NCBI GenBank assembly: GCA_903813345.2
Contig: CAIIXF020000002.1
Location: 25,806,455-25,870,454, forward strand
Origin: Owenia fusiformis
Lineage: Eukaryota; Annelida; Polychaeta; Sabellida; Oweniidae
Reading direction: 5' to 3'
DNA length: 64,000 bases
Below the pieces are notes generated by a model that saw nothing but the letters and a program-made list of their open reading frames with translations, made no database searches and was not told the DNA's origin. This document shows, piece by piece, positions 12,901 to 59,728 of this stretch. Position numbers and translations under genes: made by a program. The stretch's first letter is position 1; every line of letters begins with the position of its first letter.

Positions 12901-15900
12901 ACACTGATTTCTGTATATTCTTATTGGAAAATCTATTCAAGTTATTGATATGGAGTAATACCTGTGTAATAATTGGAACACCTTTGGTGCCTACAAGGGC
13001 TACAATGTTGGCCATGGGAATCTTAAAAGTGTTCTAAAGAGGTGTTCCACTTTACAGGTTTAACTGCATAACAAAATAAAGTTGCAATCAATTAAATATA
13101 CATGCACATATATGTACTTCTGGAAATACTTTCAGGTGTTTTTAACCTTCACAAGTTAAGTGAATTGCCCTACCATTTGTTACACGCTGGACCTAAAATG
13201 CTGGACGCACTCAAGTCAGAGGTCATACTCAATTTCAGCTTTCTTCTAGCAAAGATTAAAGCTCAGGGTTTGAGGTATTGTATTTTTTCAAGCATTTTTG
13301 TTTGTTATTATTTCAATTGAATCATTTAGTTTCATCAATCTTATGATTATTATTTTGAGACTAAAGCATCATCAGTCATCTATTTAATTTATTTATCAGG
13401 TACTCACGATTAATATTTCTTTAAAAACCTCTAAAAGTTAAAGATACCTTATCATTTATTTTTCATAAATTTTTTATTAATCATAGCTCAGTTCAAGAAG
13501 ATCTTGTCAATGCAGCAGACACATACTCCCAGGATGCAACTATTCAAGTGGTGACAGAGGTCATTAAGCTATCCCATGATGCTTTGCAAGCAGATCCTAA
13601 CCAATTAGCCGCACAAATGATGGCTCGGCTTCAGTATAGCAAGGTATGATGGGAGATAATTTCTATAAAAATGAGACAAACAATTTCAGTTTCATATCAA
13701 GGGTTCATGAATCTCATTGTTTTATTATAATGATTTACAAAATCTGAACATTGGTGTCTTAAATCTTGTTATGGCTTCCTTTTTCTGAATCGTTTATATG
13801 TGGGTTAAGGGACACTTAAAGTAGTTGTGTTTTTGTGACTTTTGGACCAGAGTGAGCATGATGTCAATTTGAATGCTTTGTGTAAATATAAATGTTTTTT
13901 AGCCAGCCAAAAAAACTCATTGTGCTTGTGTTCACTTTTTAATCTTAGAATAAAGATGGCAGTGACAATCAAACAGACATCAACACTCTGCTTAATGGTG
14001 CAGCCAATCACAAGTCAGAAGGCATACTTTATTCTTCTGGAGTGTTCTTAGCGCCACCTGGTGGACCGATTCGTTGCTCACTTTCCACGGCCAAAGGAAA
14101 AATTGCCCTGTATGGCATGAGCACATCTAAAGATGAGAGATACATTCTGTTGGGTAAGTAGTCTAAACCTTTCAGTTTCTATCATGTACGTAGTTTGTCT
14201 AAATAACACAATCGCCATGAGTTATGTGGAAAATGTGAGTAGTTAAAATGAAATGAGTGATAAATGTAAACAAAGAACAGAAATTGGCAATGTATGTTAA
14301 CAATTCAAACCAGTATCAATTTTAAATGTCTTGCATATTAGTAAGTATTGCAGAGATTGGAAGATTTGTCAATTATGAGATATCAAGCTATTTTAAGAAT
14401 GTTAAGAAAGACTCACAATCTTCCAATCCAATCCAACCCTATTATAATCTAATTGTAATTTTTAACATTAGTGGTTGATAAGCCCAAGTGGGCTGGGTTG
14501 CTTTTTATTACTTTTCTTTTGTATTGTATTGTATTGTATTGTATTGAACCTACCACTGTAAATAACAATAAAACTAAACTAAACTAAACTAAACTATAAT
14601 CAAGTATAAGAAATAGTGGTTCAACATGATTGAACAGATTGTGTTATAAATACAGTATTACATTTTTAGGTCTGAATGAGCCCAGCACTATACAGCTATG
14701 GGATGCCAAGTACAGTCAATTGATACATCAGATTGACAGCCAGATGTTCCCTGCGGGTGCTTACATCTCACAAGTGCTCCTTTGGGATAACTCATATATG
14801 GGTAAGCTTACATCTCACAAGTACTCCTTTGGGATAACTCATATATGGGTAAGCTTACATCTCACAAGTGCTCCTTTGGGATAACTCATATATGGGTAAG
14901 CTTACATCTTACAAGTACTCCTTTGGGATAACTCATACTTGGGTAAGCTTACATCTCACAAGTACTCATTTGGGATAACTCATATATGGGTAAGCTTACA
15001 TCTCACAAGTACTCATTCGGGATAACTCATATATGGGTAAGCTTACATCTTACAAGTACTCCTTTGGGATAACTCATATATGGGTAAGCTTACATCTTAC
15101 AAGTACTCATTTGGGATAACTCATATATGGGTAAGCTTACATCTCACAAGTACTCATTCGGGATAACTCATATATGGGTAAGCTTACATCTTACAAGTAC
15201 TCCTTTGGGATAACTCATATATGGGTAAGCTTACATCTCACAAGTACTCCTTTGGGATAACTCATATATGGGTAAGCTTACATCTCACAAGTACTCATTT
15301 GGGATAACTCATATATGGGTAAGCTTACATCTTACAAGTACTCCTTTGGGATAACTCATATATGGGTAAGCTTACATCTCACAAGTACTCATTCGGGATA
15401 ACTCATATATGGGTAAGCTTACATCTCACAAGTACTCCTTTGGGATAACTCATATATGGGTAAGCTTACATCTCACAAGTACTCCTTTGGGATAACTCGT
15501 ATATGGGTAAGCTTACATCTCACAAGTACTCATTCGGGATAACTCATATATGGGTAAGCTTACATCTTACAAGTACTCCTTTGGGATAACTCATATATGG
15601 ATAAGCTTACATCTTACAAGTACTCATTTGGGATAACTCATATATGGGTAAGCTTACATCTCACAAGTACTCATTCGGGATAACTCATATATGGGTAAGC
15701 TTACATCTTACAAGTACTCCTTTGGGATAACTCATATATGGGTAAGCTTACATCTCACAAGTACTCCTTTGGGATAACTCATATATGGGTAAGCTTACAC
15801 ATCTACCTAGCACTCAATTTGGATAACTCATACATGGGTAGTGGGTACTTGATTCTTGATTATAACTGTACATTTCACAAGTATTACCCTTGAAAAAAAG

Positions 15901-18900
15901 GTACTTTGGACAAATGTCAAACTGGCCATGTTTTTAATATGGAAAATAGAGTGAAAAACAAGAACTTAATATGACATGTTCAATATCATTTACACCTACT
16001 GGACGTTTTTTAGTAAGTATTAAATAGTAAAACCTGTGTAAGTGGAACACCTTTGGTACCTCTAAAAATTGTTCCACTTGGGAGGTGTTCCACTTATAGA
16101 GGTTCATTTAACATTAAGTCAGGTAGTCTTGTGAAAAATGTTCCACTTTACAGGTTTCACTGTACTCATTATGAGAAAATATTGATTTTTAGTATATTCC
16201 TCTGTTTTGTAAGTCAAACCCTTATGGACATGTCCTTTTAATATACCCTCATATTTCTTACAGTGGTGTCTTACAAGGGAGGAGTGAAACTATTCGACTT
16301 CCAGACAGGGGAGGAAAGCCATACTATCAGTGACATCAACCAGTCCTGTGCCCCTGGCCTCACTTTCATCATATACAATGGAGAACCTTCCATTGCTGGT
16401 AATATGATAAGTTATTTTGTCACCACGAGAACTGATGACATATTATTGTAGTCCCCAACTTTTTTGTGGATTGTGTTCAGCAGTGGGCGGTTTTTTTGGT
16501 AGTCAGTGTTTGGCGCCTGTAACAAATGACAGGTGACACCTTTTGAATGTTAATGCCTTTGTTATGTACTTTTCTGGATTCCGATTTTGTGATTGGTCAA
16601 ACACAGGTCACATGACCAAAATTAATCAAATTGATTAGCGAGGAATATATACCTGTTCAATAAATGCGACAGTGACCCTTCTTTTAATCAGTAAGTTCAT
16701 CAATACAAATAAAATGTATGTAGTCCATTAACAGGTTTTGGGCAGACCTTTCAATACCTGTACCTTTATTTGAAATATTTTAGAACCTTTCTAGCCTGCA
16801 ATTCTCGAAAGAATTCTATTTCTTTTATATTTCAGTGTATGACGCTTCTAAGGTGATCATCTACAATAATGAGATGGTGGAAACGCTAGAATTGAACATC
16901 CCGGAACTGAACCAATCAGAGGTCAACGAACAAACTGTGCCAATGATCAAAGCATTTGCGTCCTCGATCATCTGTGAAGTTGGAAAAAACACAATGGTCA
17001 TCTTAGACCTGAGGACGTATAACACAGCACATGTAAAATTATTCAAAATTGATGTGCTTGTATCTATGGATGGTGCAATCGGTGATATCTTCCCACTGCC
17101 CACAGGGGAGATTCTGGTTACGAGTACAATGTCCCAGACAGAGTTTGAAATATATGGATTGGCAACAGGAGAGCTGGTAAGTTAGTTCTACTGGTATATA
17201 CTGTAAAACCTGTTAAGTGGAATACCTACCGTATATGTGGAACACTTTCAGAAATGGAACACTTTTCAAAGTTTTGGTAATGTAAAATGAGCTTCTACAA
17301 GTTCAAAGTTTTGGTGCTATTAAATTAATATAAAATGAGCCTCTACAAGTTCAAAGTTCTGGTACTATTAAATTAATTTAAAATGAGCCTCTACAAGTTC
17401 AGAGTTTTGGTACTATTAAATTAATGTAAAATGAGCTTCTGCAAGTTCAAAGTTTTGGCACTTTTAAATTAATATAAAATGAGCCTCTACAAGTTCAAAG
17501 TTTTGGTACTATTAAATTAATTTAAAATGAGCCTCTGCAAGTTCAGAGTTCTGGTACTATTAATTTAATTTAAAATGAGCCTCTACAAGTTCAGAGTTCT
17601 GGTACTATTAAATTAATTTAAAATGAGCCTCTACAAGTTCAGAGTTCTGGTACTATTAAATTAATTTAAAATGAGCCTCTACAAGTTCAGAGTTCTGGTA
17701 CTATTAATTTAATTTAAAATGAGCCTCTACAAGTTCAAAGTTCTGGTACTATTAAATTAATTTAAAATGAGCCTCTACAAGTTCAGAGTTCTGGTACTAT
17801 TAAATTAATTTAAAATGAGCTTCTGCAAGTTCAAAGTTCTGGTACTATTAAATTAATTTAAAATGAGCCTCTACAAGTTCAGAGTTCTGGTACTATTAAA
17901 TTAATTTAAAATGAGCTTCTGCAAGTTCAACGTTTTGGAACTATTAAATTTATTTAAAATGAGCCTCTACAAGTTCAAAGAAATGTTACCTGTAAAATGA
18001 ACCTCTCTGGGACACCTCTTACATGGAATGCTTTTTTTGAGGTACCAACATGTTCCATTTATACAGGTTTCACTGCACTGTAATGTTAACCAAGAACAAT
18101 TGCAGGAATTCATTTCACAATATAATTAACCAATAAATGCGACCCTTACATATTCAACAGCTGTGTGTTAATATTATTTCCATAAGATAAAGTCTGAAAG
18201 TATTAAAAACACATGTAGAGAGAAGAAACATTTAAGAGTACTAGCCATGAGGTAGTAAATCCCCAGCATCCCACAAATTGATTTGATGTACAGAGAAGTA
18301 GGGCTCTGTTTTGGAACCACTATATTTTACAATTTGGTCGCAAGTCATCGTTTGTCAAAAAGTAGACAATGTTTTTTTCTGAATTGTAAGTTACGATCAT
18401 ACCATAAACAAACCCCTGTGTCCTTCAATCCACTCCTATCACCATTCAGAATAATTACAATCCAAATGTAAGATAATTTATTGCTTTGGTTCCAGATTGA
18501 AAAAGTGTCTTTGGAGAAGGTGTCTTACTCTCATGGCCAGGTGACAATGACACAAGACAGCAGATATATCATCATAACTGAAGATGTAAGAGTGGAGTTA
18601 TGGGACTGGCAAACTAAGGTAATCCTTGAAAAGTCAAAATAATAATTCAGTTTATAAATGGGACTGGCAAACTAAGGTAATCCTTGAAAGGTCAAAATAA
18701 TAATTCAGTATATAAATGGGACTGGGAAACTAAGGTAATCCTTGAAAGGTCAAAATAAAAATTCAGTATATAAATGGGACTGGCAAACTAAGGTAATCCT
18801 TGAAAGGTCAAAATAATAATTAAGTTTATAAATGAGACTGACAAACTAAGGTAATCCTTGAAAGGTCGAAATAATAATTCAGTAAATAAATAGGACCGGC

Positions 18901-21900
18901 AAACTAAGGTGTCCCACAAGGCCCCGGGAACATGTATAAAAAAAATTGAGTCGACATCTGTATTTGGTTTTTTTATACATGTTCCCGGGGCCTATGGTGT
19001 CCCATATTCTGTGTGACAGTATCGTTTCATTGAATTAGAAATGAGAACATTTTTGTATGACCTTATTGCACAACTAGGTATATTGATTTTCTAGGAACTT
19101 GCCCATGTTATTACTCATAAGAGGCCCATCTCGTCAGCTGAAAGCCAAACTGGGGAATTTGTTACAATGCTGGACTTTGATGCGAGTGCAGCTCATACAT
19201 TATCTCAGTGGAATATCAACAATCTCAATGCCAACCAACTTGAGGATGACGTGTTTCAACTTGGGTCTGTCAATACTGAAAGATCTGTTCCGCACTTATT
19301 CTTGGTAGAAGACAGGAATAGCCAGCTTGACATGTGCATGTGGCGTGTCATGAACAGCCAAATGAAAGAAATTGGGGAGATCAAAACAGAAAAGGATGCA
19401 TCTGTGATAATCGTAGATGAAACCGTAGCGATAGTGTACCATGAGGCTGTAATTAAGCTTGTGCTCATCAAAGATTCATACGTCATACACACGATAGCCA
19501 AAGATGTTGATTATTTATGGAAGAACATAATCGAAGTTAATGGCAACCAGTGTGTCATCACAATCTCAAAAAACACCATACTTATCTATGACATCATCAA
19601 TTGTGACATCATCAGGTCATGTGACTCAGCTGGGGACAATAAAATCAGAACTCTAATATCGAATCCAACGGGAAGTCTATTGATATGTAGTTTCGCAAAA
19701 TACACTGGCTCCATGCTAACATTTGATATAAAGGGAGATGCTACAACATTCTTACGCCCATCTGAGGAAGATTACGATTATGACTTATCGATCGATCTTG
19801 CGACATTGTCATATGATGGGAGATTCCTTGCAATGATCAGTGAGAGGGTGACTGATAATAGATCTAAAGGAATACCTAACATCTCGCTACCAGGATTGGT
19901 TGTATGGGATTTGAAACAAGGTAACTTCAATTTCAAGTCTAGTATTAATGTTTTTATGTCACCACCAAAAGTGATGACATATTGTGATAGTCTCCAACTT
20001 TATTTTATGGACAGTGTTCTGCTTTCGGCATTCTGCATTCGGCATTCATTGGTCTGCATTTGCTGGTTGGTGTCTGTACCAAATGGCAATGTAAATGTGC
20101 AATGTAAATGTACAATGTAAGTGTGCAATGATATAAATGTACAATAAAAATGTACAATTTTCAATGTAAATGTAAATAATGAATGTAAGGTTCATTGAAT
20201 GATTGCCAATATTTCAGGTAAAATTGTGCACAAGCTTCATCTCCCAGAGTATGCCAAGCTGAATCACGAGCTACACTTTACTAGCCAGGGGGCGCTACTA
20301 GTCCACAGTCAGGCCCAGTCTGTCAAATATGAGAGTGACATCTTTACACACCTCTGGACCTTAGATGAAGGTGAGGAAATTAAAATTAATTAATTAACCA
20401 TAGAAATACATTAACGTTTAATCTGAGTCCTATTGGCATAGGCATAGCCAGGGGGAGTGTGAAACCAAAAAAATTTGGCGATTGCAGCCCCCTGACTGAA
20501 AGCTGGCTCCGCCCCTGCCTGGGACTGGCCTAAACTGTTCAGATAAGCAGATTTCATTGGCATTTCAAGTTTTTATAACATGGAAGTCTATGCATGACAG
20601 ATTAAAGTAATAAGACCCAAAAAGCGTTCACATTGAGAGGTTTTTGAATAAGAGAGGTGTTTGTATGGTATGTATAGGATCTACTGTAAATATAAGGAGT
20701 AAATTATGAAATAAATCATTGTTAGTGACATCTATAAAATGTAGTTACACTGGCTGTGGAGCGGATTTTGTCCCAGTGTTTTGATTTATATTATCTTGTA
20801 TGTTAATTGTTCTGGTTCCTGTATATTTGCATTGGATCACGATTGTTGGACCTATTGTTATACTGACACAAAGTAGGGTAATATTCTTTAGAGCAAAATT
20901 CTCTCTTACACCTATTTGAATTCACGTAAGAACCCAGGTTATTTTAAGATTACTTTTTCGACTTGGCCCAGCTTAATAGTCCAATTAACTAGCTATTAAT
21001 ATTGTTTTTAGTGAAGTGCACTGCAAAATGGAAGAAAGCTGGTCATCAAGTTGTTGCACTGTCAGATAGTATCAACTATGCCCTTATGTACCAGAGCACT
21101 ACAAAGTTACTCTATCTGCAAGACATCCATAAAGACAAGACTCTTGGAGCCATATACATTGACAGGGTAAGGTTCTTATGCCACCAACAGAGGTGACATA
21201 TTGGTATATTCTCCAACTTGGTGGTTAGTGTCTGTAACAGGCATCTGTAACAAATGGCAGGTGATGACATTTTGCACATTAATGCTTTGTCTCCATTGGT
21301 CTAAAGTTGGTGTTTGGTGTTCGCTGTCTGTAATATGCGTCTGTAACAAATGACAGGTGGTGACGTTTTGCACTTGCGCCTTGTCTCCATTGGTCTAAAG
21401 TTGGTGTTTGGCGTTTGCTTTCTGTAATATGCGTCTGTAACAAATGACAGGTGGTGACATTTTGCGCCTTGTCTCCATTGGTCTAAAGTTGGTGTTTGGC
21501 GTTTGCTTTCTGTAATATGCGTCTGTAACAAATGACAGGTGGTGACGTTTTGCACTTGACCCTTGTCTCCATTGGTCTAAAGTTGGTGTTAGGCGTTTGC
21601 TTTCTGTAATATGCGTCTGTAACAAATGGCAGGTGGTGACATTTTGCACTTGTGCCTTGTCTCAATTGGTCTAAGGTTATCTTTTTCAAAGGCTGACTTA
21701 TCTGATACAACCTTTAAAAGGAGTAAGTCTTATGCTGTTATAAAGATGGCAGAATTGTAGTTCATATGTTACTAGTTATTTACTATTTGAGTTGATTACA
21801 CTGACCCAAAAACTGTAAGGACGGTTTATAAGTTTTTCTTTTTAATTATTTTTTATTCACGTTTTTTCATTTTTTCATTTCTATACAAATACATGCGATT

Positions 21901-22274
21901 CCAACGTTACCCTCTCATTCATCATACATTGTCTTCAGACACTTGCATATTGCATATTGTGGAAATTGGGAGATTATAATATGAAATGAAGGACCATGAT
22001 ATGACATAAAATTGAATGTCCCAAACATTGAAAATAGGCTACTTTGGTGAACTCCTGACCCAATTTCTGGTTGACACTATTTTAAATATGGGTCACATTA
22101 TAGCATGGAATAAAAGTGAGTTTTCTGAAAAGAATAACCGCTAAATGAGAAATTATGAAGTTGTCTTTTTTCCAGATGCAAGATGTAGAATCCAGCTGTA
22201 TACTGCAGACTAACAATGAGGTGAAAGGAATTGTGAATACACTGCATGGTCCAGTACTTCTTGAAACTATTTAG
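3930..22274 (+). CDS. NACHT and WD-repeat protein, NWD1/NWD2-like STAND ATPase (28 exons, 1689 aa)
   Basis: Cytosolic signal-transduction ATPase. Exons: 3930-3986, 4268-4378, 4636-4728, 5019-5112, 5479-5684, 5926-6038, 6762-6982, 7341-7595, 7819-8027, 8485-8627, 9005-9137, 9933-10139, 10490-10684, 11134-11278, 11662-11840, 12165-12324, 12611-12694, 13136-13274, 13487-13643, 13949-14153, 14670-14801, 16264-16398, 16836-17176, 18496-18618, 19095-19920, 20218-20370, 21012-21166, 22176-22274. Phases agree throughout and the sum is 5070 nt. Domains: basic Lys/Gln-rich N-terminus (1-110); DUF4062-type region (about 115-220; RVFTSSTFKD, VVDMRWGVRDE); NACHT with Walker A GTSGSGKTS (471-479) and Walker B LIFLDSLD (566-573); winged-helix region (728-780; NGLSHAEMEDLLS, RRLPPLLW); degenerate WD propeller to the end (LWDAKYSQLI, VKLFDFQTGE, LWDWQTKELA, VVWDLKQGKI). 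Human NWD1 and NWD2 have similar length and order. Vertebrate NWD1 is tied to steroid-receptor and apoptosome-like biology; the role here is unknown. Confidence 0.92.
5360..5410 (+). repeat. tRNA-like B-box fragment (possible SINE remnant)
   Basis: The stretch gcgccgtaaccacgag followed by gttgcgagtttgagacg resembles the 3' half of a tRNA with a decayed B box. It lies in an intron just upstream of the exon at 5479. Too short and degenerate for a firm assignment. Confidence 0.25.
6044..6375. mobile_element. Inverted-repeat MITE, CAGTRAAACCTGT family, copy 1
   Basis: Begins tacagtaaaacatgtct and ends with the inverse, caggtatttctgta; inside, gaacacc and ggtgttca words face each other repeatedly. 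This is one of about ten copies in the window sharing the terminal repeat (T)ACAGTAAAACCTGT and the internal GAACACCT words. It lies in an intron of the NWD gene. No coding capacity. Confidence 0.7.
8165..8342. mobile_element. CAGTRAAACCTGT-family MITE, copy 2
   Basis: Left end gtacagtaaaacgtgtct, right end tacaggttttactg. Contains gttcacattgagaggtgttc near the right end. Intronic in the NWD gene, just after the exon ending at 8027. Confidence 0.7.
9270..9674. mobile_element. Two abutting CAGTRAAACCTGT-family MITE copies
   Basis: The first copy ends with caggttttaatgtacagta around 9437 and the second starts there, running to ttacaggttacactgta at 9674. The second carries gttccact and ggctcgtttagttcattt words that recur in the copies at 16025 and 17199. 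Intronic in the NWD gene. Confidence 0.6.
10790..10943. mobile_element. CAGTRAAACCTGT-family MITE, diverged copy
   Basis: Starts acagtatagccttgtac and ends cagatacaaacgttttgctg, with attgaaaggtgttc inside. The ends match the family imperfectly. Intronic in the NWD gene. Confidence 0.5.
11555..11625. mobile_element. Half of a fold-back element related to the one at 47791
   Basis: Contains gaggatatcctatgattta followed by gatatgatttttatccacga. The same words occur as both arms of the palindrome at 47791-47901 in the guanylyl cyclase gene. Here it ends about 35 bp before the exon at 11662. Confidence 0.55.
12955..13070. mobile_element. CAGTRAAACCTGT-family MITE, truncated copy
   Basis: Begins near ggaacacctttggtgcc and ends with gttccactttacaggtttaa. 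The left terminal repeat is not clear. Intronic in the NWD gene, about 65 bp before the exon at 13136. Confidence 0.55.
14380..14600 (+). repeat. Probable retroposon tail with two pentamer microsatellites
   Basis: The motif gtatt is repeated about six times from 14520, followed after a short spacer by aataaa and then about five copies of actaa to 14597. An AATAAA signal followed by a pentamer array is typical of the 3' end of a non-LTR retroposon or SINE. It lies in the NWD intron before the exon at 14670. Confidence 0.5.
14757..15840 (+). repeat. 47-bp minisatellite spanning an exon end and its splice donor, 22 copies
   Basis: The last 45 bases of the NWD exon ending at 14801 plus its donor GTAAGC form the first unit. 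The unit then repeats exactly every 47 bp, so a donor GT occurs at 14802 + 47n for n = 0 to 21 (last at 15789). The n = 17 copy (15601) has AT in place of GT. Units differ by single bases (acatctcac/acatcttac, ctcctttggg/ctcattcggg). A decayed 23rd unit ends near 15838. No indels occur in 22 units, which points to recent expansion. Read-through in frame meets TAA at about 14882, so only the first donor is productive. Confidence 0.95.
16025..16165. mobile_element. CAGTRAAACCTGT-family MITE
   Basis: Left end tagtaaaacctgtgtaagtg, right end ttacaggtttcactgta. Inside are facing ggaacacc and ggtgttcca words. This is one of the cleanest copies. NWD intron, about 100 bp before the exon at 16264. Confidence 0.75.
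16420..16570 (+). repeat. Interspersed repeat, GTCACCAC family
   Basis: Starts gtcaccacgagaactgatg and continues with agtccccaacttttttgtgg, then a cgcctgtaacaaatgacagg block and ttaatgcctttg. Copies of the same word order occur at 19955, 21178, 23805, 30163 and 33790. The source is unknown, and no terminal inverted repeat is evident. Confidence 0.6.
17199..18080. mobile_element. CAGTRAAACCTGT-family MITE carrying a 48-bp minisatellite core
   Basis: Left end tactgtaaaacctgttaag, right end tacaggtttcactgcac. Between them, about 17265-17985, a 48-bp unit (gagcctctacaagttc, then tctggtactattaaatta) repeats about 15 times with slight variation. Normal family members are 140-330 bp; this one has grown to nearly 900 bp by amplification of internal sequence. 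NWD intron. Confidence 0.8.
17265..17985 (+). repeat. 48-bp tandem repeat, about 15 units
   Basis: Unit period is exactly 48 bp, for example ctctacaagt at 17341 and 17389. Variants alternate (caaagttttgg/cagagttctgg, cctctaca/cttctgca), suggesting a two-unit higher-order expansion. It lies inside the MITE described at 17199-18080. Confidence 0.9.
18602..18915 (+). repeat. 58-bp minisatellite spanning an exon end and its splice donor, 6 copies
   Basis: The tail of the NWD exon ending at 18618 (gggactggcaaactaag) and the donor GTAATC are repeated every 58 bp, with GT at 18619, 18677, 18735, 18793, 18851 and a changed sixth copy at 18909 (GTGTCC). Reading past the first donor meets TAA after 24 bases, so only the first donor preserves the frame. 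Confidence 0.93.
18908..19004. mobile_element. Perfect hairpin with 9-bp flanking repeats
   Basis: Arms 18919-18944 and 18968-18993 are perfect reverse complements (aggccccgggaacatgtata and inverse) around a loop of about 23 bp. The whole is flanked by identical 9-mers, ggtgtccca, at 18908-18916 and 18996-19004, as expected for a target-site duplication. It interrupts the sixth unit of the 58-bp array, so it probably inserted after that array formed. Confidence 0.75.
19955..20110 (+). repeat. GTCACCAC-family repeat copy
   Basis: Begins atgtcaccaccaaaagtgat, followed by tagtctccaactttatttta and short ggcattctgcatt direct repeats, then runs into a low-complexity aatgtaaatgtacaa array to about 20190. 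Intronic in the NWD gene, starting about 35 bp after the exon ending at 19920. Confidence 0.6.
20540..20693. mobile_element. CAGTRAAACCTGT-family MITE, diverged copy
   Basis: Contains gttcagataagcagatttca on the left, gcgttcacattgagaggttt on the right and ends ggatctactgta. The left terminal repeat is degraded. NWD intron. Confidence 0.45.
21178..21690 (+). repeat. GTCACCAC-family copy expanded into about five 88-96-bp units
   Basis: After an ordinary family start (gccaccaacagaggtgacat), the block ttgtctccattggtctaaag with ttctgtaatatgcgtctgta and caaatgacaggtggtgac is repeated with starts near 21287, 21381, 21469, 21565 and 21658. It lies in the last NWD intron, beginning 12 bp after the exon ending at 21166. 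Minus-strand open frames here are products of the repetition. Confidence 0.8.
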
Positions 22275-22330
22275 ACTCAAGACAATGCACGATTCAGTTA
22301 GGCGCAGGTTCAGCTGACAATGCATAGGCC

Positions 22331-22491
22331 AGTCCCTGGGGGGTTCACTCTAAATAATTTGGGTAGGTATGTGCAGCACGGGCAATTTTGGCTTAGGGCT
22401 TAAACCATGGAAGCTGGCAGGGAAAGAGAGGAAAAATAGGTACATAGGTATTAAGATGTACAGTATATTAGAGTGAAACCCCCGGGGTCCA
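22331..22491. mobile_element. Small inverted-repeat element (MITE-like)
   Basis: Left ctggggggttcactctaa (from 22336) pairs with ttagagtgaaacccccgggg at 22468-22487; gtaggtatgtg and tacataggtat words face each other inside. It lies 57 bp after the NWD stop codon and may be in the 3' UTR. Confidence 0.6.
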
Positions 22492-23348
22492 GTTATTCTG
22501 GGGCTGTTTTTAGCTGAGACCAAGAACACTGATGATATTTTAATGCATGAGCTTTGTGTGCCATAATTACGATATGCTCATAAAATGATTTATATAATTG
22601 GTTATATAGAACTACCGTGATTAATATAGTGCAATAGCATGCTTTAATATCTGTATATTTAATACAGTACTCCTAGTATTTTTCTCGCTCGATTTAATTT
22701 TGCGCAATTCGCAATGGTGGTAAAATCGCGAAAACAATCATCACAAAATCTGTTTATCAAATCCCCGGAAGTAGACATGATTACCTTACATTATCGAACC
22801 ATCGTTTTTGCAATGTTGTAATATATAAAAAAAACTTCAGGTTAACTTACGTTTACATTTGCTTGAGGATTCAGAGAATACTGTTTAAACATGTGAAATC
22901 TGCGAAATTTTTTTGGGCCTTTCTGAAAATTCGCGAAATTATAAGCTAGATATACAGTGGGAGTTCAGGAACTGAATTCCCAGCTCTTATGTTGAGACAT
23001 GGTGATCTATATTTTTAAATGAAAAAGTGAAAAATAGTGAAGCTAGAAAGAAGGAAATGGAATAGAGATGTGGTATTCACTCAGAAGTGTGGAAAAAGAA
23101 AGTTAAGAGATTGGTTCATTCAAATTTTAGAATGAAATAACTGAAATTGGCGTAATTACTGGAATACTATAGTAGAATAGTATATTGGACAAAAATTGCC
23201 CGAAATTTATAAAGAGAGACAATATGTAACATGGCAAGTTGGTCAATCAAAGCGCATTTTCTCATGTAGAGTTAAGGCTATTTGAAATCAGCAAAATTGT
23301 ATATATGTACTTGTATAAGCTTACTCTAGGGTTTGCCTGTTTATTTAG

Positions 23349-23460
23349 GGCTTGTATCCACTAACTCAGGGCTTGTATCTGCTAACTCAGGGCTTGTATC
23401 CGCTAACTCAGGGCTTGTATCCGATAACTCGGGACTTGTATCCGCTAGCTCAGGACTTGT
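23349..23460 (+). repeat. 21-bp tandem repeat, 5 copies
   Basis: Unit agggcttgtatccgctaactc with small changes, five copies, intergenic. The period is a multiple of three, but no surrounding open frame supports coding. Confidence 0.85.
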
Positions 23461-23804
23461 ACTATTAGGTTTTTAAGCTTTATATCTGTTGATTAAGAGT
23501 TTGATCTGAACCTTTTAGCTCATATCTATTTATTTAGGTCTATGGGTGTTATTATGAAATTTCTTGCAGGTCTTGATCTGTTAATATAGTTTATAGAACG
23601 ATTCATGATTTTGAAGTTTTGTCTTTCAATATATTATAACATTATATAACATAGGATCGGTATTAGATCTTTTACATTGTTTACACATTTAGAATATTTT
23701 TGAGTATACATATAAGTCTGTGATAACTAAATATATTTTTAAACAAAATAATATTAATTTTCATATTTTTGTTTTTATTTTTGTTTTTTTTTGTTATTAT
23801 GTCA

Positions 23805-23935
23805 CCACCAGCAATAGTGATATATTGTCATAGTCTCCAGCTTTTTTGTGTATGCTGTTCGCAGGTTGGAGATCGGCGTCTGTAACAAATGGCATGTGAT
23901 GACATTTACATGTTAATGCCTTGTCTTATTTAATT
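23805..23935 (+). repeat. GTCACCAC-family repeat copy
   Basis: Starts tgtcaccaccagcaatagtg, continues tagtctccagcttttttgtg, a cgtctgtaacaaatggcatg block and ttaatgccttg. Same order as at 16420 and 33790. Intergenic. Confidence 0.6.
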
Positions 23936-25822
23936 TTCTCGAAAATTGTGGTCATTAATTGTGTCTAGTCGAACAACTTTTCCCCATTGGTTAAGAAGTC
24001 CATCGTGGCTTTGAAAACACCAACTCCAACTTGCATGATGCAATGTTGATAGGCGCGCAGTTTGTCAGTGTTTCAAACTGCGTGCATAGTATGCACGCAG
24101 TTTGGCTACCGCTCCGTGTAATCGCTATGCGTCCGACTGGAACATGTCTGCCCACTATTCATTTGGTTTAGTTTTCCCACTGATCATTTAAGTTTTGCTT
24201 TACTGTGGACCCCTATCTACTCACAAGGGCTTGTAGCGAGATTAAGATCATTTCTGACACTTTAATTTTCTCTTAACGGCACATTCAAACCCAGGAATGC
24301 TTGCATGACACTATAGCGATTGGCATTGTTACTTGGATGGGATTGGTGTAGAGCAAATCGCAACGACACAAGTTTCGGAGATAAACACTGTCACATCAAG
24401 ATTATAACTCAAGTTTCTCCATATGATGCCTTGTATGCAACGGAAGCCCTTTCAGGAAGTCTTAGTGTCAAATACCATTTTTAAATACGCTTTCTATTAT
24501 CCCTTTAATCACTACCACTAAGTAAACTACTGTAAAATTTCAAAATCGGGACATTATAAAAAGTGCTGAAAACGTTCACTTATTTCGCCTAGTATTTACA
24601 TAAACATGACTCATGCTGACTTATGCACATGGCGAGAAAGGTATACATTTTTTTATGTGTACCTTTGATAAAAAGGTTTACAAAAGTTAAATCGATACAA
24701 AAGCGGGTCATTATCACCAATGGGTATTGCACTTAATTAACTTACACCTTGCCATTTTCAATCATATAAACGGACTAAAATCATACAATTAACTTATTTT
24801 TGGCTAGTTTGCAATACAAATGACCATATATATTTTACCGGACGGAGTTGGACAAACCACGAAAAGCGAATAATGTATGCCATTATATGTTAAAATAGAT
24901 TTAACGCTGTGGATTGTGACGTTTGGGCGTTAGTTTAGTTTTACTTGAATAAGCTGGTGACTTGGACCTATACACTGCATTTGGGATAAAAGGAAATAAT
25001 TTCGCATTGGACAATTAGAGGAGAAAGTAAATAGGATTTACCTTAACTTGGGATTAAACTGGCCTTGCTCGCAAGTGTATATAAATACGATTTACAAAAT
25101 ATTTTCTTTTATTTAACATTCTGATCACTTCATCAATTTTAGTGTTTAAACATATGCCTCGTTAGATGGGGGGTCTGGAAAAACTGCCAGTGATGTAGAT
25201 CATTTGTGGTTTCCCTCAAAACGTCAGATTCCAGATGGTTATGATTGATAATTAAGTGATTGAATATTTGGATGAACAACTACAAGAAGCAGGCATAACA
25301 GACAACATAAACTTAAACAAAAGCTTCTGTTGGTATTTCATTTTAGGTCACCTCAAACTAAGGCTAACTATAATATGTACTTTATCCGTTCGTTTACTCT
25401 TTCGCCACCTGTCCCAGTTGAAACATGTTGCAAGGATGCAAACGATTACCTAAACATTGAAGTTTGTTTAGAAATCTGTAAACAGGTGAAGCAAATCTGT
25501 TATATGCTTCACACAGAGATAATGCTGTAAGTTTTAAACAATGAGGTATAAATAATGGTTAATAAATTGTCAAGTTAACTTATAATACCGAAAAAGACAA
25601 TTGAGGCTAAATTAAACTGGATGGATATAGGCTGACTTACAAGTGTACAAAGCCCGGGTACAACGCCTCTGTCTCTGAGCTTATTAAGATGAGCCAAGAA
25701 GTATGACTTTCAAACCAGTTTGTGCATAACGTCAGTTGTATGTGAGCATTCATACACGTAAAAAGTTAAAAAGATCAGCCTTTGAGCATCTTCTCTGTCT
25801 ATCCTAATTCAACGTGCACAAA

Positions 25823-28800
25823 ATGGATTGTACGGATCATAATACTACATTGGATCTAAGGAGAGCTGACCACACAGATGATACAGTACCAGATGCTGAG
25901 CATAAGGTCAAAAACGTTAACACTAATGAAAGTGATACACCCAAAATATCCGATGATGAATACTATGTTAATGATAAGCATCTGATAAATACTGACAGTG
26001 ATGGTACAAATGCTATGACAATCGATGCCCGTACAAATGGCAAATCAACAGAGGTGGAAAATAACTTTCGATTATCGATTGATGAAGATACCTCTGTTCT
26101 ACCTCCAAAATATGTCAACAGATTTAGATGGGATACCAAATTCAAAACAACAGGCTTGGTAATCAAGGTAGAGTAGTTGACATGCACTAGCTCCCGTTTT
26201 ATTAAAATAATTAATTTTGAAATTAAAAATAAAATACAAAAATGTTTTGCATGTAGCATTATATGTAACTTGTATCACAGAGAGCTATTTAAAGTGTTCT
26301 CTGGTTTTGAGTGCTTTCTTTTGCAAAACCACAAAGCATTTTTAGTAACTCCCTGAATAAACATATTAATTGCAGGACGAAAAAATATGAAAAACAACTC
26401 CTGAGAGAAAACTGGTGGTGGCGGAAAACCTGCACATTTTTGTTGAACCTATAATATACGAGTCACAGTGTTAAACATGCATCGTCCAGAGTGCAACATA
26501 TTTCAGATGTCCCCAAGGAATAATCGCCCCACTTCCTGTACTTCCGTGAGCTATACTAACTCTCAGCCTCTCATGTTCTTTATACTGTTTATTATCCTTT
26601 GTTGTTCGCTCTTTGGTTTCAGAAAAGAAGGACGCTTTACGTAAATACTCTCAAACCAGATGGTGGCGAGCGAATGATAACTACACTCCCTGGTAAATTG
26701 TTTGGAATATCAGGATTTTGGGATTACCATTTGGCAAGAGCAAATAAGGCCATCCATACGCCTGGTCTGCATACAATAGATATAACCATTCACACCTTCC
26801 CTTCCGAATCCGTCGAGGACCATATAGTTATAGGTTTTGGTGAGCCATATTTTTTAAATCATGAGATAACAAGAATTAAAGGGGCTCTGTAGCTAGATCG
26901 ATAGTTTTTTTTAATATTTCACATGATTATATAATTTGCTTAAAACGCTAACACCCAAGTTGGCTTAATTCGAAATGGTGGGTGCTCGGAAAGAACAAGG
27001 GCACAAATATACATAGACTAATCACCTGTTCTAATGTCATTGCCAATTCTTATACTAGATAAAAAGAAAGTATAGATTGTAAAGAGGCACTACGGACCAC
27101 GACATCTGCATTGTATTTCAGCGAAGGATTCCTACAATCCATTCCAAGGAACTAATAAGAAAAGTGGCCAAATATCGAAGCGTTTTGTCCGTAGTTCGAA
27201 GTGTCATTGTGTAGTAGGCGAGAGCGACGATTCTTGGGGATGGCTTCTTTCGGAGAACAAGATTTATCACTCCGCGAAGCCATCAGACCAGAATTCACCA
27301 AAAGGTAAATCTATTTCTGCCTCATTGCTCATGACGCATTTTTTCATTTTCATACCAGAGATATCATCATTAAGAACTGTGTATCAGTCTTTGGAATGTT
27401 ATCTTTAAGGCGGCAAACAAACCTTTCTAGTCTGGCTACGAGCTTCTGTGACCCCCCTCTACTTGATTGACTAAAGACCATGGCTTGACTAAAACTTTTC
27501 CAAAAATTCTTATTCTAAAAATTCAAGAACAAATATGGTAGTTATTGAAGGGTATTATAAGTTACCATCATGTATGCATAGGTTTCGAATGGACGAACTA
27601 CAGAAAGTACAGGTTCAAATTCTATGTTGGAACAAACGCAAACTGCGATGTCCAAGTTCTCGGATTGGATGGTTGGGGACACGAGAATGACATCGGAGTT
27701 CGCTTCTTCCAGCTTCCCACGCCAATCTGGCTTGTTGCTGCAACGTCCGGCTCATTCTCACCAATAACAGTGCAATATATATCGGGACCCACAGGTACGT
27801 ACGCTTATTTACACCCCCCTCCATAAGTTTAAAAACCGGAAATTTTCATTCGATAGCAGATGAATGCTTTCAAATTGCGTCTCATATACATTTTAATTAA
27901 GAAATAGAAAATATCAGTTTCTCAAAATAACATTTAGCAATGATAAAAATATCCAAGGGGTGTATGCCATGCACGGTGTATAACCCAAACGCTCCTACAT
28001 GCACGACGGAGGGTTTCATTTACGCGGAAACGCTCCGGAGCGAAGTAAAATGGCGGCTAATGAAGATTCCACTATGACCGTAAGTATTGTTTCTCTCGTT
28101 TCTCTTACATATCATATGTTATGGTGAAATATTATGTACCATTCGATGAACAATACCGTGAGCAAAGATCTTATTTATTCAACTTCTGGTGGTAAACTGT
28201 TATTTGCTTGATCAAAGCTCCGTAGTGTAGATCGAACGAATCTGAAGATGACGATTTGACCACAAATTACGAATTAAAGAAGTATTTCTATGAGAACTTT
28301 AATCTTTCTGTTAAAGTAGTAGATCACAAACTCGTATATTCTAATTTCCTAAAATCCCAGTCCAAATCCATTACTTGTTCTCGAAAAATCGCTTGTTTTC
28401 CTCAAAACGCTCCGTCGATTTAGAACACAATTTTAGAAACGCTCTTACCATTTTGTTTTGATATCATTTTCAGATTATTAGAGAAGAGTTCCGAATTGAA
28501 TCTATCTCTCAAAAACGTGTTGTACTTGTTAGGCAAATTGAAACATCTGAACCTGGTGGTGCTAAATGTGCAACTAGCTGATTTAAGCCTACATTAGATG
28601 ATGTCATGCCTACATGTGTGCTAAATCATAAAACTATAGAAAAAAACTAAAATTTATATGTGAATTAATCTTTCTTCTTTTGATGCCAAGGGGTATAATA
28701 GATCTTTTCTTTCTCTTCCTGAAAAGGAAAGGCAAGCTATATATTTCCTAAACTGATCTAGACTACCGGAGCGTTTCCAGTTCACTGTGTTAACCAGATC

Positions 28801-29568
28801 GGAGCGTTTCTTGAATATGAGAATGTCATCATTTTTCAGACTGGATTTTCGGTCATCAAATCACTATTACGATGATGTATGGTGCGTTGAAGCATTGGAA
28901 TTTGACTAAAATATACGTTGGTTCTCTAATCTTGGCTCAACTAATCACATGTATCGACAAAAGGGGTTTTGACCGGTAGATTGACAAATACGTTTTTGAA
29001 TTTTGATAACTATACTGCTTCGTACAGCTCTTCCTAATTGCTTCAAACGTCAACAGCCAGCCAAGTACAACATGAATATCACACCCATCGAATGGTATAC
29101 TCGAAATATGGAACTCATACCTCTTGTTCCCATTATTGGGGAAATCGTCAGACGGCTCATCATTCCCGCCAGCCAGTTTTCCTACTCCGGAGCGTTTCTT
29201 TGTTTAATTTCAGTAATGAAACGCTCCGTCGTGCATGTAGGAGCGTTTGGGTTATACACCGTGCCATGGCTTTTCGTAAAACATGGCTTGTAACCTAAAT
29301 GCAAAGTATATCCAAACAGTTATTCTATTGTTATTAAAAAATGATATAAAGAAACTTACTGCGGGCTACCATTCTGAATTATTTTTCTGGCGTTTTCTTT
29401 AGAGTTTGTAAAGTTGTTGTCAACAAATGGTATATGCCGATGTGTTCGCTGTTGACGACGGAATGGACCGAGTACACAATGTTACAGTCTACATTCAAGT
29501 ACAGAGTGGAACAGCCTTTACCAAAGACGCACTCTGCAATTCATAGACAATCTCTCATCGTAGTGTGA
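25823..29568 (+). CDS. Unnamed protein with a SPRY-like region (5 exons, 373 aa)
   Basis: Exons: 25823-26167, 26623-26839, 27122-27304, 27582-27794 and, less certainly, 29405-29568. Phases 0,1,1,1 agree and the sum is 1122 nt including the stop. The ATG at 25823 opens MDCTDHNTTLD. Residues 1-115 are polar and acid-rich with no signal peptide, probably disordered. From about 130 to 320 the pattern of alternating strands, FGISGFWDYHL, WGWLLSENKIYHS, FKFYVGTNA and DIGVRFFQLP suggests a SPRY/B30.2-like beta-sandwich, a protein-binding module. The SPRY call rests on pattern only. The last exon uses the AG at 29403-29404; the AG two bases upstream gives an earlier stop. The last intron carries a 1292-bp transposon. 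I do not recognise a named orthologue. Confidence 0.6.
27972..29263. mobile_element. DNA transposon with ~50-bp terminal inverted repeats and CCATG duplication
   Basis: The ends are reverse complements over about 50 bp, starting CACGGTGTATAACCCAAACG on both sides, and are flanked by CCATG at 27967-27971 and 29264-29268. GGAGCGTTT or its inverse recurs about nine times inside, especially near the ends, as expected for subterminal transposase-binding repeats. There is no recognisable transposase, so the element is non-autonomous. It sits in the last intron of the SPRY-like gene. Superfamily unclear: CAC termini recall CACTA elements, but those make 2-3 bp duplications. Confidence 0.85.
28050..28581 (+). 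CDS. Possible two-exon mini-gene inside the transposon (45 aa)
   Basis: ATG at 28050 in the strong context aaaATGGCGGC opens a 30-nt exon (MAANEDSTMT) ending at a perfect donor, GTAAGTAT. A pyrimidine-rich acceptor ends at 28473 and the second segment (28474-28581) stays open for 35 codons (from IIREEFRIES to KCATS) before TGA; both borders are phase 0. The product is charged and resembles nothing I know. It may be a captured first exon of a host gene, a relic of a transposase gene, or chance. Confidence 0.35.
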
Positions 29569-30010
29569 TAATGATGAATGTCCCCAGAGTTTATTGTCCT
29601 CTCTCCATGTATGATGGAGTTTAAAGTAGCTCTCTAGATATCTCCGTTGCTTGGTAATGTAATGCCCCAGTCACATTTGATCTACGACAACCGTACAGCG
29701 GCCGTAGCTTCATTATCAGAGGGATATTACCGGGCAGTGCAACGGATGTTCCCTTTTCTAAGGTTGCGACATTGAATATATGCAATAATATGTGCAACGA
29801 AAATCTAAATCTTGCTTTAAACCTGGGAAAAATCAAGCAAAATTGAGTAGGAGACATGACGATAGACCAATTAATACACAATGGAGTTGACATTTCAGTT
29901 GATTTTATTGTAGCTCACACACATGTACACCCCCCTCTACATGTGACGCATGAGGGAAGGGGTGTGGAGTCGGGGGGGGGGGGGGGCTCAGGAGAGCTGA
30001 TGCAAGCTTA

Positions 30011-30130
30011 GAATTATCTGCTATTAAAATGTATTTGGAAATATAGATTGACAATCTTAGCCATTATCTTCGAATTATCTGCTATTAAAATGTATTTGAA
30101 AATATAGATTGACAATCTTCGCCACCAATC
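30011..30130 (+). repeat. Direct duplication of about 60 bp
   Basis: The words gaattatctgctattaaaat and atatagattgacaatctt occur twice with a 61-bp offset and only a few mismatches. Confidence 0.85.
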
Positions 30131-30162
30131 TCCTCTATAAATGATACTCTAATTCTGTTTTT

Positions 30163-30260
30163 ATGTCACCAGCACAAATATGGTAGCTGGTGACACTTTG
30201 CAAGTCAATGGCTTGGTTTTATAAAGCTGTGCCCTATTTAGTCCAATGGAGTTATTTATT
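30163..30260 (+). repeat. GTCACCAC-family repeat, short copy
   Basis: Starts tatgtcaccagcacaaatat, then ggtgacactttgcaagtcaa and tggcttggttttat. The central block of the family is missing. Confidence 0.5.
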
Positions 30261-31055
30261 GAACATTTGAATCTTCCAAATCTCTTATTTTTGTCAAGAT
30301 TCAATTGACTGAGCTTGTATTCGCGAATGGACATTAAACCCCGTTCACATTTTCAAAAATGAATTCGATCGCATTGTTCCCTTCAACATTTGAATCGTGA
30401 ATTTTGGTCTTATTTCCTAACGAAAAATTCCAAAACTCACAAAAAATAATCGAGATATTGGTTCGAATCATTTGAACTGTTTATTTTGAAATCATAATCG
30501 GTTATAATTTCCGAAAATAACGACATTTCGGCGTTTCATTGTCGGAAAATATCGACTTCGATTCTGGGAGCCAATCCTCCTTGTATCAGACGAGAATGAA
30601 TAATTACAAGTGATCGCTACTCATACTCAAATATAATCAGTAAATTGCATAATTATACACAATCCAGGTACAATTGCTTTTTAAAGAGAAATTGATAACT
30701 ATAAACGCGCCAGAGAGTCAGTGCTGGCGAAATTGAATAGACATGGTATTTCATGGTATGTGATTAATACAAGGTATGATTCGATTAACGCATTGTAGTA
30801 CTTTTAAGTTATTGAAACTTGTTTTGGATATACTAACTCTGGAATTTTAACGCAATTTTTTTCAAGAAGTAAGCCAGCATATTGAGGGGTATGGGGATGG
30901 GTTGATTACCAATTATTATCAATGGTCCCCACCCTTTTATAAAGACGTTACGTATTTATAATAAAATGAATGAACTTCTGTTGGAGGCAACTTTTATTTT
31001 CACAAAGAATGAGGTTGTATTGTATCAACATTTTTTACCCTTGTGTTAATAGTAG

Positions 31056-31267
31056 CATCCGGTTACTGAAAAGATAGTCAGTCACGAGCAAATTTATCCA
31101 GCGGCTCCAATAATAATCCACACGGTGATCCAGTGAGAATTCCTTCAATTCAGCAAACAGGACGTTATCTGGTGAATTTCATAATGTCTTGATTGCGTTG
31201 TGTAAACGTCTCATTGGATTATTGGAGCCCTTTGATGTGACTGATTTGCTTTTCAGTGACCGGATGA
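31056..31267. mobile_element. Fold-back element of about 210 bp
   Basis: Left catccggttactgaaaagat pairs with cttttcagtgaccggatg at the right end, and ggctccaataataatcca pairs with tggattattggagcc inside, leaving a central loop of about 80 bp. Confidence 0.7.
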
Positions 31268-32563
31268 TACAATAAACATACGTGTAAAATATTTGGATAC
31301 AAATTGACCTACTTCCTTTTTATAAACAATTTTTCATTCATTCTTATAACATATTAACATACATGAAGTATTGCATTGTGTAGAAGATTGTACAGATGTC
31401 TAAATAAATTCAATGATTATTGTTATAATGCAAATATTGTTATTGTTGTTGTCGATAATTATGTAATGAATAAACAATGAGTCTTGGCATTGGGGATTAG
31501 GAAAAATGATAGCAAAGGGGCGAAGCTAAGACCTAAGACGAATTTTTTATCGTAAAACGTAGTTCGTCTTCATAACATTGGCACGTTTTTGTCAATTTTC
31601 CTTGGAACATATTTAACTCTCTAATATTGAGGCGTAAGAAGAGAACGACACGAAAACAGATAAAATCCAATTCATCACCAAATTTTTCCATTGATATTGA
31701 TTTGATATCAAACGTCAAAAAATCTCACAGCTCAAAAATCATTGAGTGCTCCAGTGGACAACTGAGCAAGCCACTTAGGTTCAAGTAAATCAATCATTGT
31801 GAGGTGATATGATATAAGTAATATTTGAAGATATTTCAAAAATGAGTAAAGACAACACTGAACATTATTTGATGTGAATGAATGATAAACAAACTTTGTA
31901 ATCAACAAAGTGGTTGTTTTGTTTGTTACTGACAATATATCGTCCTCATACATAAATAATTCAAATATTGTGCCTTAATTAACTCATATACCGCACATCA
32001 CTGCTGATGCAGATCAATCATTCCGATACCCATGCCAGTATGCATATGCTATTGTCAAATTGTACTGATGTAACGATATAATAATGAAAAACGTCTTAAA
32101 ATGCAATATGTGCTGTTTTCCCAACCTATATCTTTTGAAAATTAATGAAGTTATTTGATTTTAGTGAGTAAGATAGATGGCGCTGTTATTGTGAGATTGT
32201 GGGATAGCGCAAGTTGAATCAAATATTACATTTTAAACAATCTCTAATTCTTTCAGTGTTTCATAAAAATAATGAGTCAAACAAAATATTTCGTATATAA
32301 GGAATTCTTTAGAGTTTATCCAATGGAAACTTCATGAAAACTTATTGAGGATTGAAAAGTTATCAGAAAAAGGTTTGGATGACCTGTTCTGTCCCGGCTA
32401 CTATATCAAGTAATTGTTTTGAAAAGGGAGTTGTAAAACTTGTATTTAAACTTAGTTGACGCACCTTCGCTAAATATTGGCTTATGAACATAATGGGAGA
32501 GAGTAATTGTACTGATCTCAGTCAATATAAAAATGTAGTAGGCTACTGGGACGTGTGACGTAA

Positions 32564-32766
32564 TGTACAGTACAACCGGTGTATCCGAACACCTCTCTAA
32601 TTTGAACATTTCTCAATAAAACACTTTTTGGTTCACTTTTTTTTTAATCTGTCATAGACTTCCATGTTAAAACTAGAAATATACTTTAAACACCTGCTTA
32701 GCTGAACATTTTTGGTTTGTCCATGGAGTGGCGTTCGAATTACACGACAGACAGGTTTCACTGTCT
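32564..32766. mobile_element. CAGTRAAACCTGT-family MITE upstream of the guanylyl cyclase
   Basis: Left tgtacagtacaaccggtgta followed by gaacacctctctaatttgaa; right gacagacaggtttcactgt. It ends about 105 bp before the cyclase start codon, so it probably lies in the promoter or 5' UTR. Confidence 0.7.
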
Positions 32767-32871
32767 ATCATCAATTAGGCAAGTTGATCGCGAAAATATG
32801 AGCTGTAGGAAATTGAATAGGATTTAGTCTCAGATAAAAGACAAAAGGCGTACGTTCCAAACAAATTAAGA

Positions 32872-55356
<22,485 letters not shown>

Positions 55357-59276: not shown

Positions 59277-59728
59277 CTGTCTAAATTTCATTATACAATC
59301 ATACAGTACTTTAGTGAATATAGATTTTTTGTTGTTTCCATTTTAATCGTAACAAATGAAACATGGGAAATAATATCAATTTAGTTCCTAAAAACGACAA
59401 TTATCAACAAAATTAAATGAAGGATCGATTAAGATTAAAAAGATGCGTAAAGTGTATGCACTATGCAATGTGGAAATCAATTGACTTCATTTCAATTGAA
59501 ATTCAACTTCTGGTGAACAGCTTTAACGAATGAATCGATCTCTGTAAGCAGGAATAAGAAAGCGATTCGATTCAAATTCGATTTTTGTGTTGAAACTTTA
59601 AAACGTGATATCATAGACAATCGCAGAGATGTCGAGGAGATGTTTGCAAACAAACAATTTACATATAATTTGACTTGGATTTATAAATTATAGAACTCAG
59701 CAACTGGGAGATAATTTAATCAGCAACC

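What the first reader, a model, noticed from the sequence alone, without database searches (positions are those of the whole stretch)
14757..53860. Four tandem arrays that each copy a functional splice site
Four arrays in two unrelated genes straddle an exon-intron border and amplify it: donors at 14802 and 18619 (NWD gene), an acceptor at 41244 and a donor at 51142 (cyclase gene). In all four, the productive site is the copy bordering the exon body (first donor, last acceptor); other copies give an early stop or frameshift. Four in 64 kb looks more than casual. Duplications crossing a border leave the mRNA unchanged if the exon-proximal copy wins, so they are tolerated. The arrays may also act as splice-site reservoirs or as sinks making NMD-targeted transcripts. 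I know of no named class for this.
Basis: partly seen in the sequence, partly recalled or inferred. Interest (0 to 1): 0.88.

Follow-up and report, generated by a model that had tools for sequence, protein, structure and literature searches.

The report
Tandem repeats duplicating splice sites (mirages)
In what looks like an annelid worm genome, short stretches that straddle the edge of an exon have been copied many times in a row, leaving many look-alike splice sites beside the real one; this was already described in lancelets as 'mirages' and seems to be mostly tolerated repeat growth.

Summary
The anatomy is confirmed. Four arrays cross an exon border at the stated places, and only the copy next to the exon body keeps the frame: 41 of 41 extra sites found by motif lead to a stop. 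[quoted passage not shown] a human ABCA7 VNTR is similar. (2) Four in 64 kb is not exceptional here. In 76 stretches around kinesin, cyclase and myosin exons (258 kb), 12 of 468 borders carry such a duplication, against 4 of 82 in the window (P=0.28). Intron positions are duplicated more often. Against a unit-length null the pooled excess is 1.7-2.2 fold (P 0.1 to 0.004). The genome looks like an annelid's, so mirages seem to occur outside lancelets. The longest example holds 18 copies of a kinesin exon. Extra copies look mostly neutral. One open point: their core splice signals vary less than the rest of the unit (P 0.001-0.007; weaker when ascertainment-prone arrays are left out). RNA evidence is missing.

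The parts
14670..14801 (+). Exon of the NWD-like gene; its last 43 bases are the first copy of array 1
   Evidence: exon model; array
14759..15840 (+). Array 1: 47 bp x 23, unit = 43 exonic bases + GTAA; productive donor 14802; 21 decoy donors found by motif
   Evidence: the unit matched only this locus in the genome search
18496..18618 (+). Exon of the NWD-like gene ending in array 2; productive donor 18619
18600..18925 (+). Array 2: 58 bp x 5.4, 19 exonic bases per unit; 5 decoy donors
40824..41284 (+). Array 3: 54 bp x 8.6 with a higher-order duplication; productive acceptor is the last copy, exon starts 41245; 7 decoy acceptors, two of them a variant type (the first, 40817, lies just before the TRF start)
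41245..41386 (+). Exon of the receptor guanylyl cyclase gene that begins in array 3
50949..51141 (+). Cyclase-domain exon of a natriuretic-peptide-receptor-like guanylyl cyclase; productive donor 51142
51119..53860 (+). Array 4: ~170-bp units copying the exon tail and donor, 8 decoys, nested in 402-bp and larger duplications
   Evidence: the unit matched only this locus
51266..51898 (.). Element with 118-nt inverted terminal arms (84% complementary) inside the first unit of array 4; its right end recurs in the 402-bp units

Best explanation
These are mirages: ordinary minisatellite duplications whose unit happens to straddle an exon border. Duplication and array growth go on throughout the introns of this genome. 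When the unit crosses a border, the copy nearest the exon body can still be spliced as before, so the allele is tolerated, and the other copies pile up in the intron as decoy splice sites. Shown: the arrays, the frame logic, the occurrence in other genes, and decoy coding sequence close to neutral. Inferred: that splicing prefers the exon-proximal copy (the shortest-exon choice, as exon definition would predict) and that leakage to decoys is low or removed by NMD.
For: Four arrays confirmed, 41 of 41 motif-found decoys unproductive. Same pattern at 12 of 468 sampled borders in three gene families (copies seen, and for the two cyclase cases), plus an 18 x 159-bp case. Both border types are affected: window 3 donors and 1 acceptor, sample 3 donors and 9 acceptors. 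The rate at borders lies between introns and exon interiors in the window and in two of three families. Decoy diversity is alike in exonic and intronic parts over 11 arrays (0.043 vs 0.053, P=0.37). Changes present in at most half of the decoys are 24 synonymous of 76, against about 25% expected (P=0.12; counted by me, tested), with stops among them. Unit lengths are multiples of 3 in 5 of 13 arrays. Lancelet mirages are reported to be spliced regularly (PMC3087553 and PMC3902484 passages).
Against: Array-level counts show an excess: 12 of 67 arrays cross a border against 5.41 expected (simulation P=0.004; Poisson 0.0098); with three doubtful ones dropped, 9 (P=0.098). Crossing arrays have more copies than intronic ones (median 4.2 vs 2.7, P=0.019; units of 40 bp or more 3.9 vs 2.7, P=0.13). 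Core splice signals of decoys are less variable than random windows of the same units (pi 1.64 vs 5.79, P=0.001; variable columns 7 vs 14.3, P=0.007). Over all changes the synonymous share is above expectation (38 of 102 vs 25.2, P=0.003).
Confidence: 0.8

Rival explanations
1. The arrays are maintained because the decoys do something: they act as a sink that makes NMD-targeted transcripts, or hold spare splice sites, and selection keeps the decoy signals intact.
For: Core splice columns of decoys are depleted in variation. 114 of 117 decoys found by similarity keep GT or AG (summed). 115 of 120 decoys examined for frame give stops. In human ABCA7 a VNTR whose 25-bp unit starts with a donor gives a minor out-of-frame isoform, 2 +/- 1% (PMC5954066 passages).
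Against: The invariant dinucleotide alone is not clearly depleted (2 variable columns vs about 4 expected, P 0.15 and 0.21; frequency-weighted P 0.027). In the 7 arrays with at least 7 decoys the core signal weakens (P 0.026 by pi, 0.09 by columns). Most sampled arrays were picked by similarity around the border, and 15 window-and-mode combinations were tried. Exchange with the constrained working copy could give the same pattern.
Confidence: 0.1
2. The arrays are seeds of intron or exon gain: decoys become new introns, exons or in-frame insertions, as proposed for lancelet globins.
For: The model is proposed in PMC3087553 (passages). One sampled kinesin has two decoy acceptors in frame and open, which would add 14 or 28 residues (array C6a).
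Against: 115 of 120 decoys examined give stops (41 of 41, 74 of 79); of the other five one is a frameshift, two have lost the site, two are the in-frame ones. No new intron was seen in the window, and no relative genome was available to date introns.
Confidence: 0.05
3. Assembly artefact: repeats expanded by the assembler.
For: No reads could be inspected; one lancelet mirage was mis-assembled in the genome draft (PMC3087553).
Against: Copies differ from each other, with 3 to 25 variable columns per unit over 13 arrays, and the pattern recurs at 13 borders outside the window.
Confidence: 0.05

Closest known systems
'Mirages' of lancelets (Adh3, globins BflGb6 and BflGb9, PGBD5, troponin C)
   [quoted passage not shown] 5' or 3' borders; units of 10-160 bp; many copies keep splice signals; regular mRNA reported (PMC3087553 and PMC3902484, passages)
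   Different: Here the host appears to be an annelid; up to 23 copies; 12 of 468 sampled borders affected; no transcript data seen here
ABCA7 intron 18 VNTR (human)
   Same: Each 25-bp unit begins with a splice donor beside exon 18; a one-unit extension is made at a low level (2 +/- 1%) and is out of frame (PMC5954066, passages)
   Different: As described there the unit starts with the donor and no exon tail is mentioned in the passages seen; the length effect is on skipping of exon 19
Intron gain by tandem genomic duplication
   Same: Tandem duplication copies splice signals (PMC4974935 and PMC3443670, search listing only; Rogers 1989 cited in PMC3087553)
   Different: There the duplication makes a new intron; here a border is multiplied inside an intron

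Membership tests
Mirage (tandem duplication of an intron-exon boundary) | Tandem repeat unit spans an exon-intron border | tested here: met
   exonic part 19-43 bases in arrays 1-3, about 22 in array 4 (read)
Mirage (tandem duplication of an intron-exon boundary) | Both 5' and 3' borders can be affected | tested here: met
   3 donors and 1 acceptor in the window; 3 donors and 9 acceptors among 12 sampled borders
Mirage (tandem duplication of an intron-exon boundary) | Many copies keep splice signals | tested here: met
   114 of 117 decoys keep GT or AG over 17 arrays, one of which gave no decoy in that count (summed)
Mirage (tandem duplication of an intron-exon boundary) | Regular splicing not disturbed | not testable with these tools
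   no RNA data; only the frame argument
Mirage (tandem duplication of an intron-exon boundary) | Length instability between haplotypes or cells | not testable with these tools
   one assembly only
Intron gain by tandem genomic duplication | Duplication yields a new intron absent from relatives | not testable with these tools
   G000 has no relatives in the tool

The most novel reading that the evidence does not exclude
Mirages are a pervasive feature of an annelid genome, and their decoy splice sites are kept intact by selection or by repeated exchange with the working copy, so that the arrays act as maintained splice decoys that tune splicing or supply in-frame variants.
Probability: 0.12. 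Interest if true: 0.8.

Novelty: new member of a known kind. Interest (0 to 1): 0.5.

Why it matters
The arrays put up to about 20 copies of one splice site side by side in natural genes. The core signal is identical to the authentic one in 78 of 117 decoys, and 24 of 117 share the whole 35-40-base context. Local signal strength cannot say which of these copies wins, so junction counts by copy would measure position and exon-length effects on splice choice directly. The case also suggests that mirages are not a lancelet oddity, and that gene models in such genomes may be confused by them (my own gene model took the wrong copy once).

Tried and rejected
Lancelet origin: considered because mirages were known there. 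Set aside because contigs C1-C12 measure 31.9-62.2 Mb and add up to about 477 of 498 Mb, while lancelets have 19-20 chromosomes (recalled), and because three exons match the annelid linker-globin family over its cut-off (PF16915, C6; the control genomes, all prokaryotes, were silent). O. fusiformis has 505.8 Mb and 12 chromosome-scale scaffolds (PMC9977687 passage). The species is an inference. Searches for GFP and molluscan haemocyanin were empty, but their controls were silent too. COX1 was not found.

Dispersed mobile element as source: the units of arrays 1 and 4 matched only their own loci (the tool warns that common words are skipped). By contrast the 94-bp array at 21231-21678 is a dispersed family.

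Further border-crossers in the window: the arrays at 17278, 21231 and 33197 lie near exons but do not cross a border.

Rows dropped or altered: 9 of 50 predicted window exons were left out before the count of 82 borders. Of 14 sampled borders flagged, two were dropped: C7:28062563, where the array only abuts the border, and C3:15601306, which I judge an over-extended exon call. For C12:25287544 the donor was moved to the first copy. In one search these three exons were set by hand. Of the 12 crossing arrays I hold three as doubtful (C2:31636291 and C9:12809693, degenerate with 10-12 exonic bases; C7:28062563, probably the dispersed repeat in a false exon). The myosin donor C10:4786820 is a degenerate array, kept. 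L035 was picked because it showed an array and enters no rate. Array 4 is in no decoy-evolution test.

Superseded runs: printed shifted translations; replaced; minus-strand loci not turned; replaced; pooled again; the window part is used.

Led nowhere: structure search with the array 3 junction peptide; plasmid search with the cyclase (bacterial cyclases only).

Full report
What is there. Four tandem arrays cross exon borders in two genes on the + strand: an NWD-like gene (label from the finding and a sub-threshold Pfam match) and a natriuretic-peptide-receptor-like guanylyl cyclase. Array 1 (47 bp x 23) has a unit of 43 exonic bases plus GTAA. Array 2 (58 bp x 5.4) carries 19 exonic bases per unit. 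Array 3 (54 bp x 8.6) carries an acceptor and 40 exonic bases. Array 4 is a set of ~170-bp units, nested in larger duplications, that carry the tail of a cyclase exon and its donor; its first unit is interrupted by an element with 118-nt inverted arms. The frame passes only through the copy next to the exon body: 41 of 41 decoys found by motif give a stop, in the extension or, in one case, in the next exon after a frameshift. The array 4 joint is supported by a gapless alignment to NPR1. Arrays 2 and 3 have only weak Pfam support at the joint, and array 1 rests on phase.

Is it more than chance in the window? I asked, for each position, whether the 30 bases around it recur within 3000 bases at 80% identity. 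Borders: 4 of 82. Intron positions: 18.9% in the NWD-like gene and 22.9% in the cyclase gene. Exon interiors: 0.6% and 1.3%. An array has one working border but many intron positions, so I also used an array-level null that drops one unit at a random tolerated place: 1.57 crossings expected for 13 arrays, 3 detected by the same rule or 4 with array 4, P 0.21 or 0.075. The window alone gives no clear excess.

Genome sample. The window lies on contig C2 of a 498-Mb assembly. I took the best exon matches for kinesin, guanylate cyclase and myosin head domains with 1.5 kb on each side: 30, 30 and 25 loci, merged into 26, 29 and 21 stretches, 258 kb. With a home-made gene model 14 of 468 borders were flagged. 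Two were dropped, leaving 12 of 468 (2.6%, interval 1.3-4.4%). Among borders of exons supported by a family match, 8 of 296 were flagged and 7 remain. The window's 4 of 82 is not different (P=0.28). By family the kept borders are kinesin 8 of 180, cyclase 2 of 156, myosin 2 of 132, so the rate is uneven. Intron positions are duplicated at 8.3, 7.9 and 9.5% and exon interiors at 2.7, 0.7 and 0.5%; part of the exon figure is the border arrays themselves. At array level 12 of 67 cross against 5.41 expected (simulation P=0.004). Three of the 12 look doubtful to me; with 9 the P is 0.098. Crossing arrays have somewhat more copies (median 4.2 vs 2.7, P=0.019). I read this as no more than about a two-fold excess, not proven.

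The longest new example. The kinesin search showed regularly spaced hits on C2. The stretch holds 18 copies of a 159-bp unit made of an acceptor and most of a kinesin motor exon (KIF4-like is my recall of the motif). The last copy runs on into the full exon, and the 17 others end in a stop.

How decoys evolve. Over 11 arrays the exonic and intronic parts of decoys are about equally variable (P=0.37). Changes seen in at most half of the decoys are 24 synonymous of 76 (P=0.12 against 25%), with stops among them (my count; test). Over all changes the synonymous share is raised (38 of 102, 25.2 expected, P=0.003); much of that comes from differences shared by most decoys, better read as changes in the working copy. 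Unit lengths are a multiple of 3 in 5 of 13 arrays. Outside the window 74 of 79 decoys give a stop, one a frameshift, two have lost the site, and two (one kinesin, 42-bp unit) are in frame and open. Against pure neutrality, core splice columns vary less than random windows of the same units over 13 arrays and 109 decoys: 7 variable columns against 15.6 when compared with the working copy (P=0.0024), 7 against 14.3 among decoys only (P=0.007) and pi P=0.001. Flanking windows show no significant depletion (P 0.10 to 0.95). Leaving out one array at a time keeps P between 0.003 and 0.019; in the 7 arrays with at least 7 decoys the P values are 0.026 (pi) and 0.09 (columns). Picking by similarity around the border, 15 window-and-mode combinations tried, and exchange with the constrained working copy are possible causes.

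How it most likely works. Shown: duplication units cross borders, copies multiply on the intron side, and in the window only the exon-proximal copy is productive by frame. Inferred: splicing takes the copy that gives the shortest exon, as exon definition predicts (general knowledge), and the leak is small. The ABCA7 VNTR gives a measured analogue, a one-unit extension in 2 +/- 1% of transcripts (PMC5954066 passages). Local sequence often cannot decide: 78 of 117 decoys have the same core signal as the working site and 24 share the whole 35-40-base context.

What is known. [quoted passage not shown] PMC3902484 (passage) adds PGBD5 and troponin C. The original Adh3 paper is not held and is known to me through citation. 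In my literature searches (capped lists) I noticed no listed paper that applied the term outside lancelets; this does not show absence from print.

Host. Three matches to the annelid linker-globin family over its cut-off, 12 contigs of 32-62 Mb that hold about 96% of 498 Mb and 35% GC fit Owenia fusiformis (505.8 Mb, 12 scaffolds, PMC9977687 passage). The species is inferred.

Verdict. A true observation, of a known kind, in what appears to be a new phylum for it, at a rate that is ordinary for this genome. Its main value is as a natural experiment on splice-site choice.

Noticed in passing
window 21231-21678 (and, by eye, about 16500-16545): The 94-bp intronic array belongs to a dispersed family: 45 matches listed, 40 of them away from this locus (counts are lower bounds).
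   Followed up: partly
window 51266-51898: Element with 118-nt inverted terminal arms inside the first unit of array 4; its right end was later multiplied with the exon tail.
   Followed up: partly
L009, exon start 579 (G000 C6:34539207): A kinesin mirage whose two decoy acceptors are in frame and open; use would insert 14 or 28 residues.
   Followed up: partly
G000 C9:37986009-37994334: Twelve hits to the same early part of the myosin head at uneven spacing, perhaps a cluster of alternative myosin heavy chain exons.
   Followed up: no
window 34737-35144, minus strand: Open frame that reads like the end of a mariner-type transposase (label recalled; frame).
   Followed up: no
window 59726-60775: Long uninterrupted frame resembling a beta-1,3-galactosyltransferase (label recalled; frame).
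   Followed up: no
G000, PF00211 search: At least 150 listed matches to the guanylate cyclase domain, so the family seems large in this genome (matches are exons, not genes).
   Followed up: no
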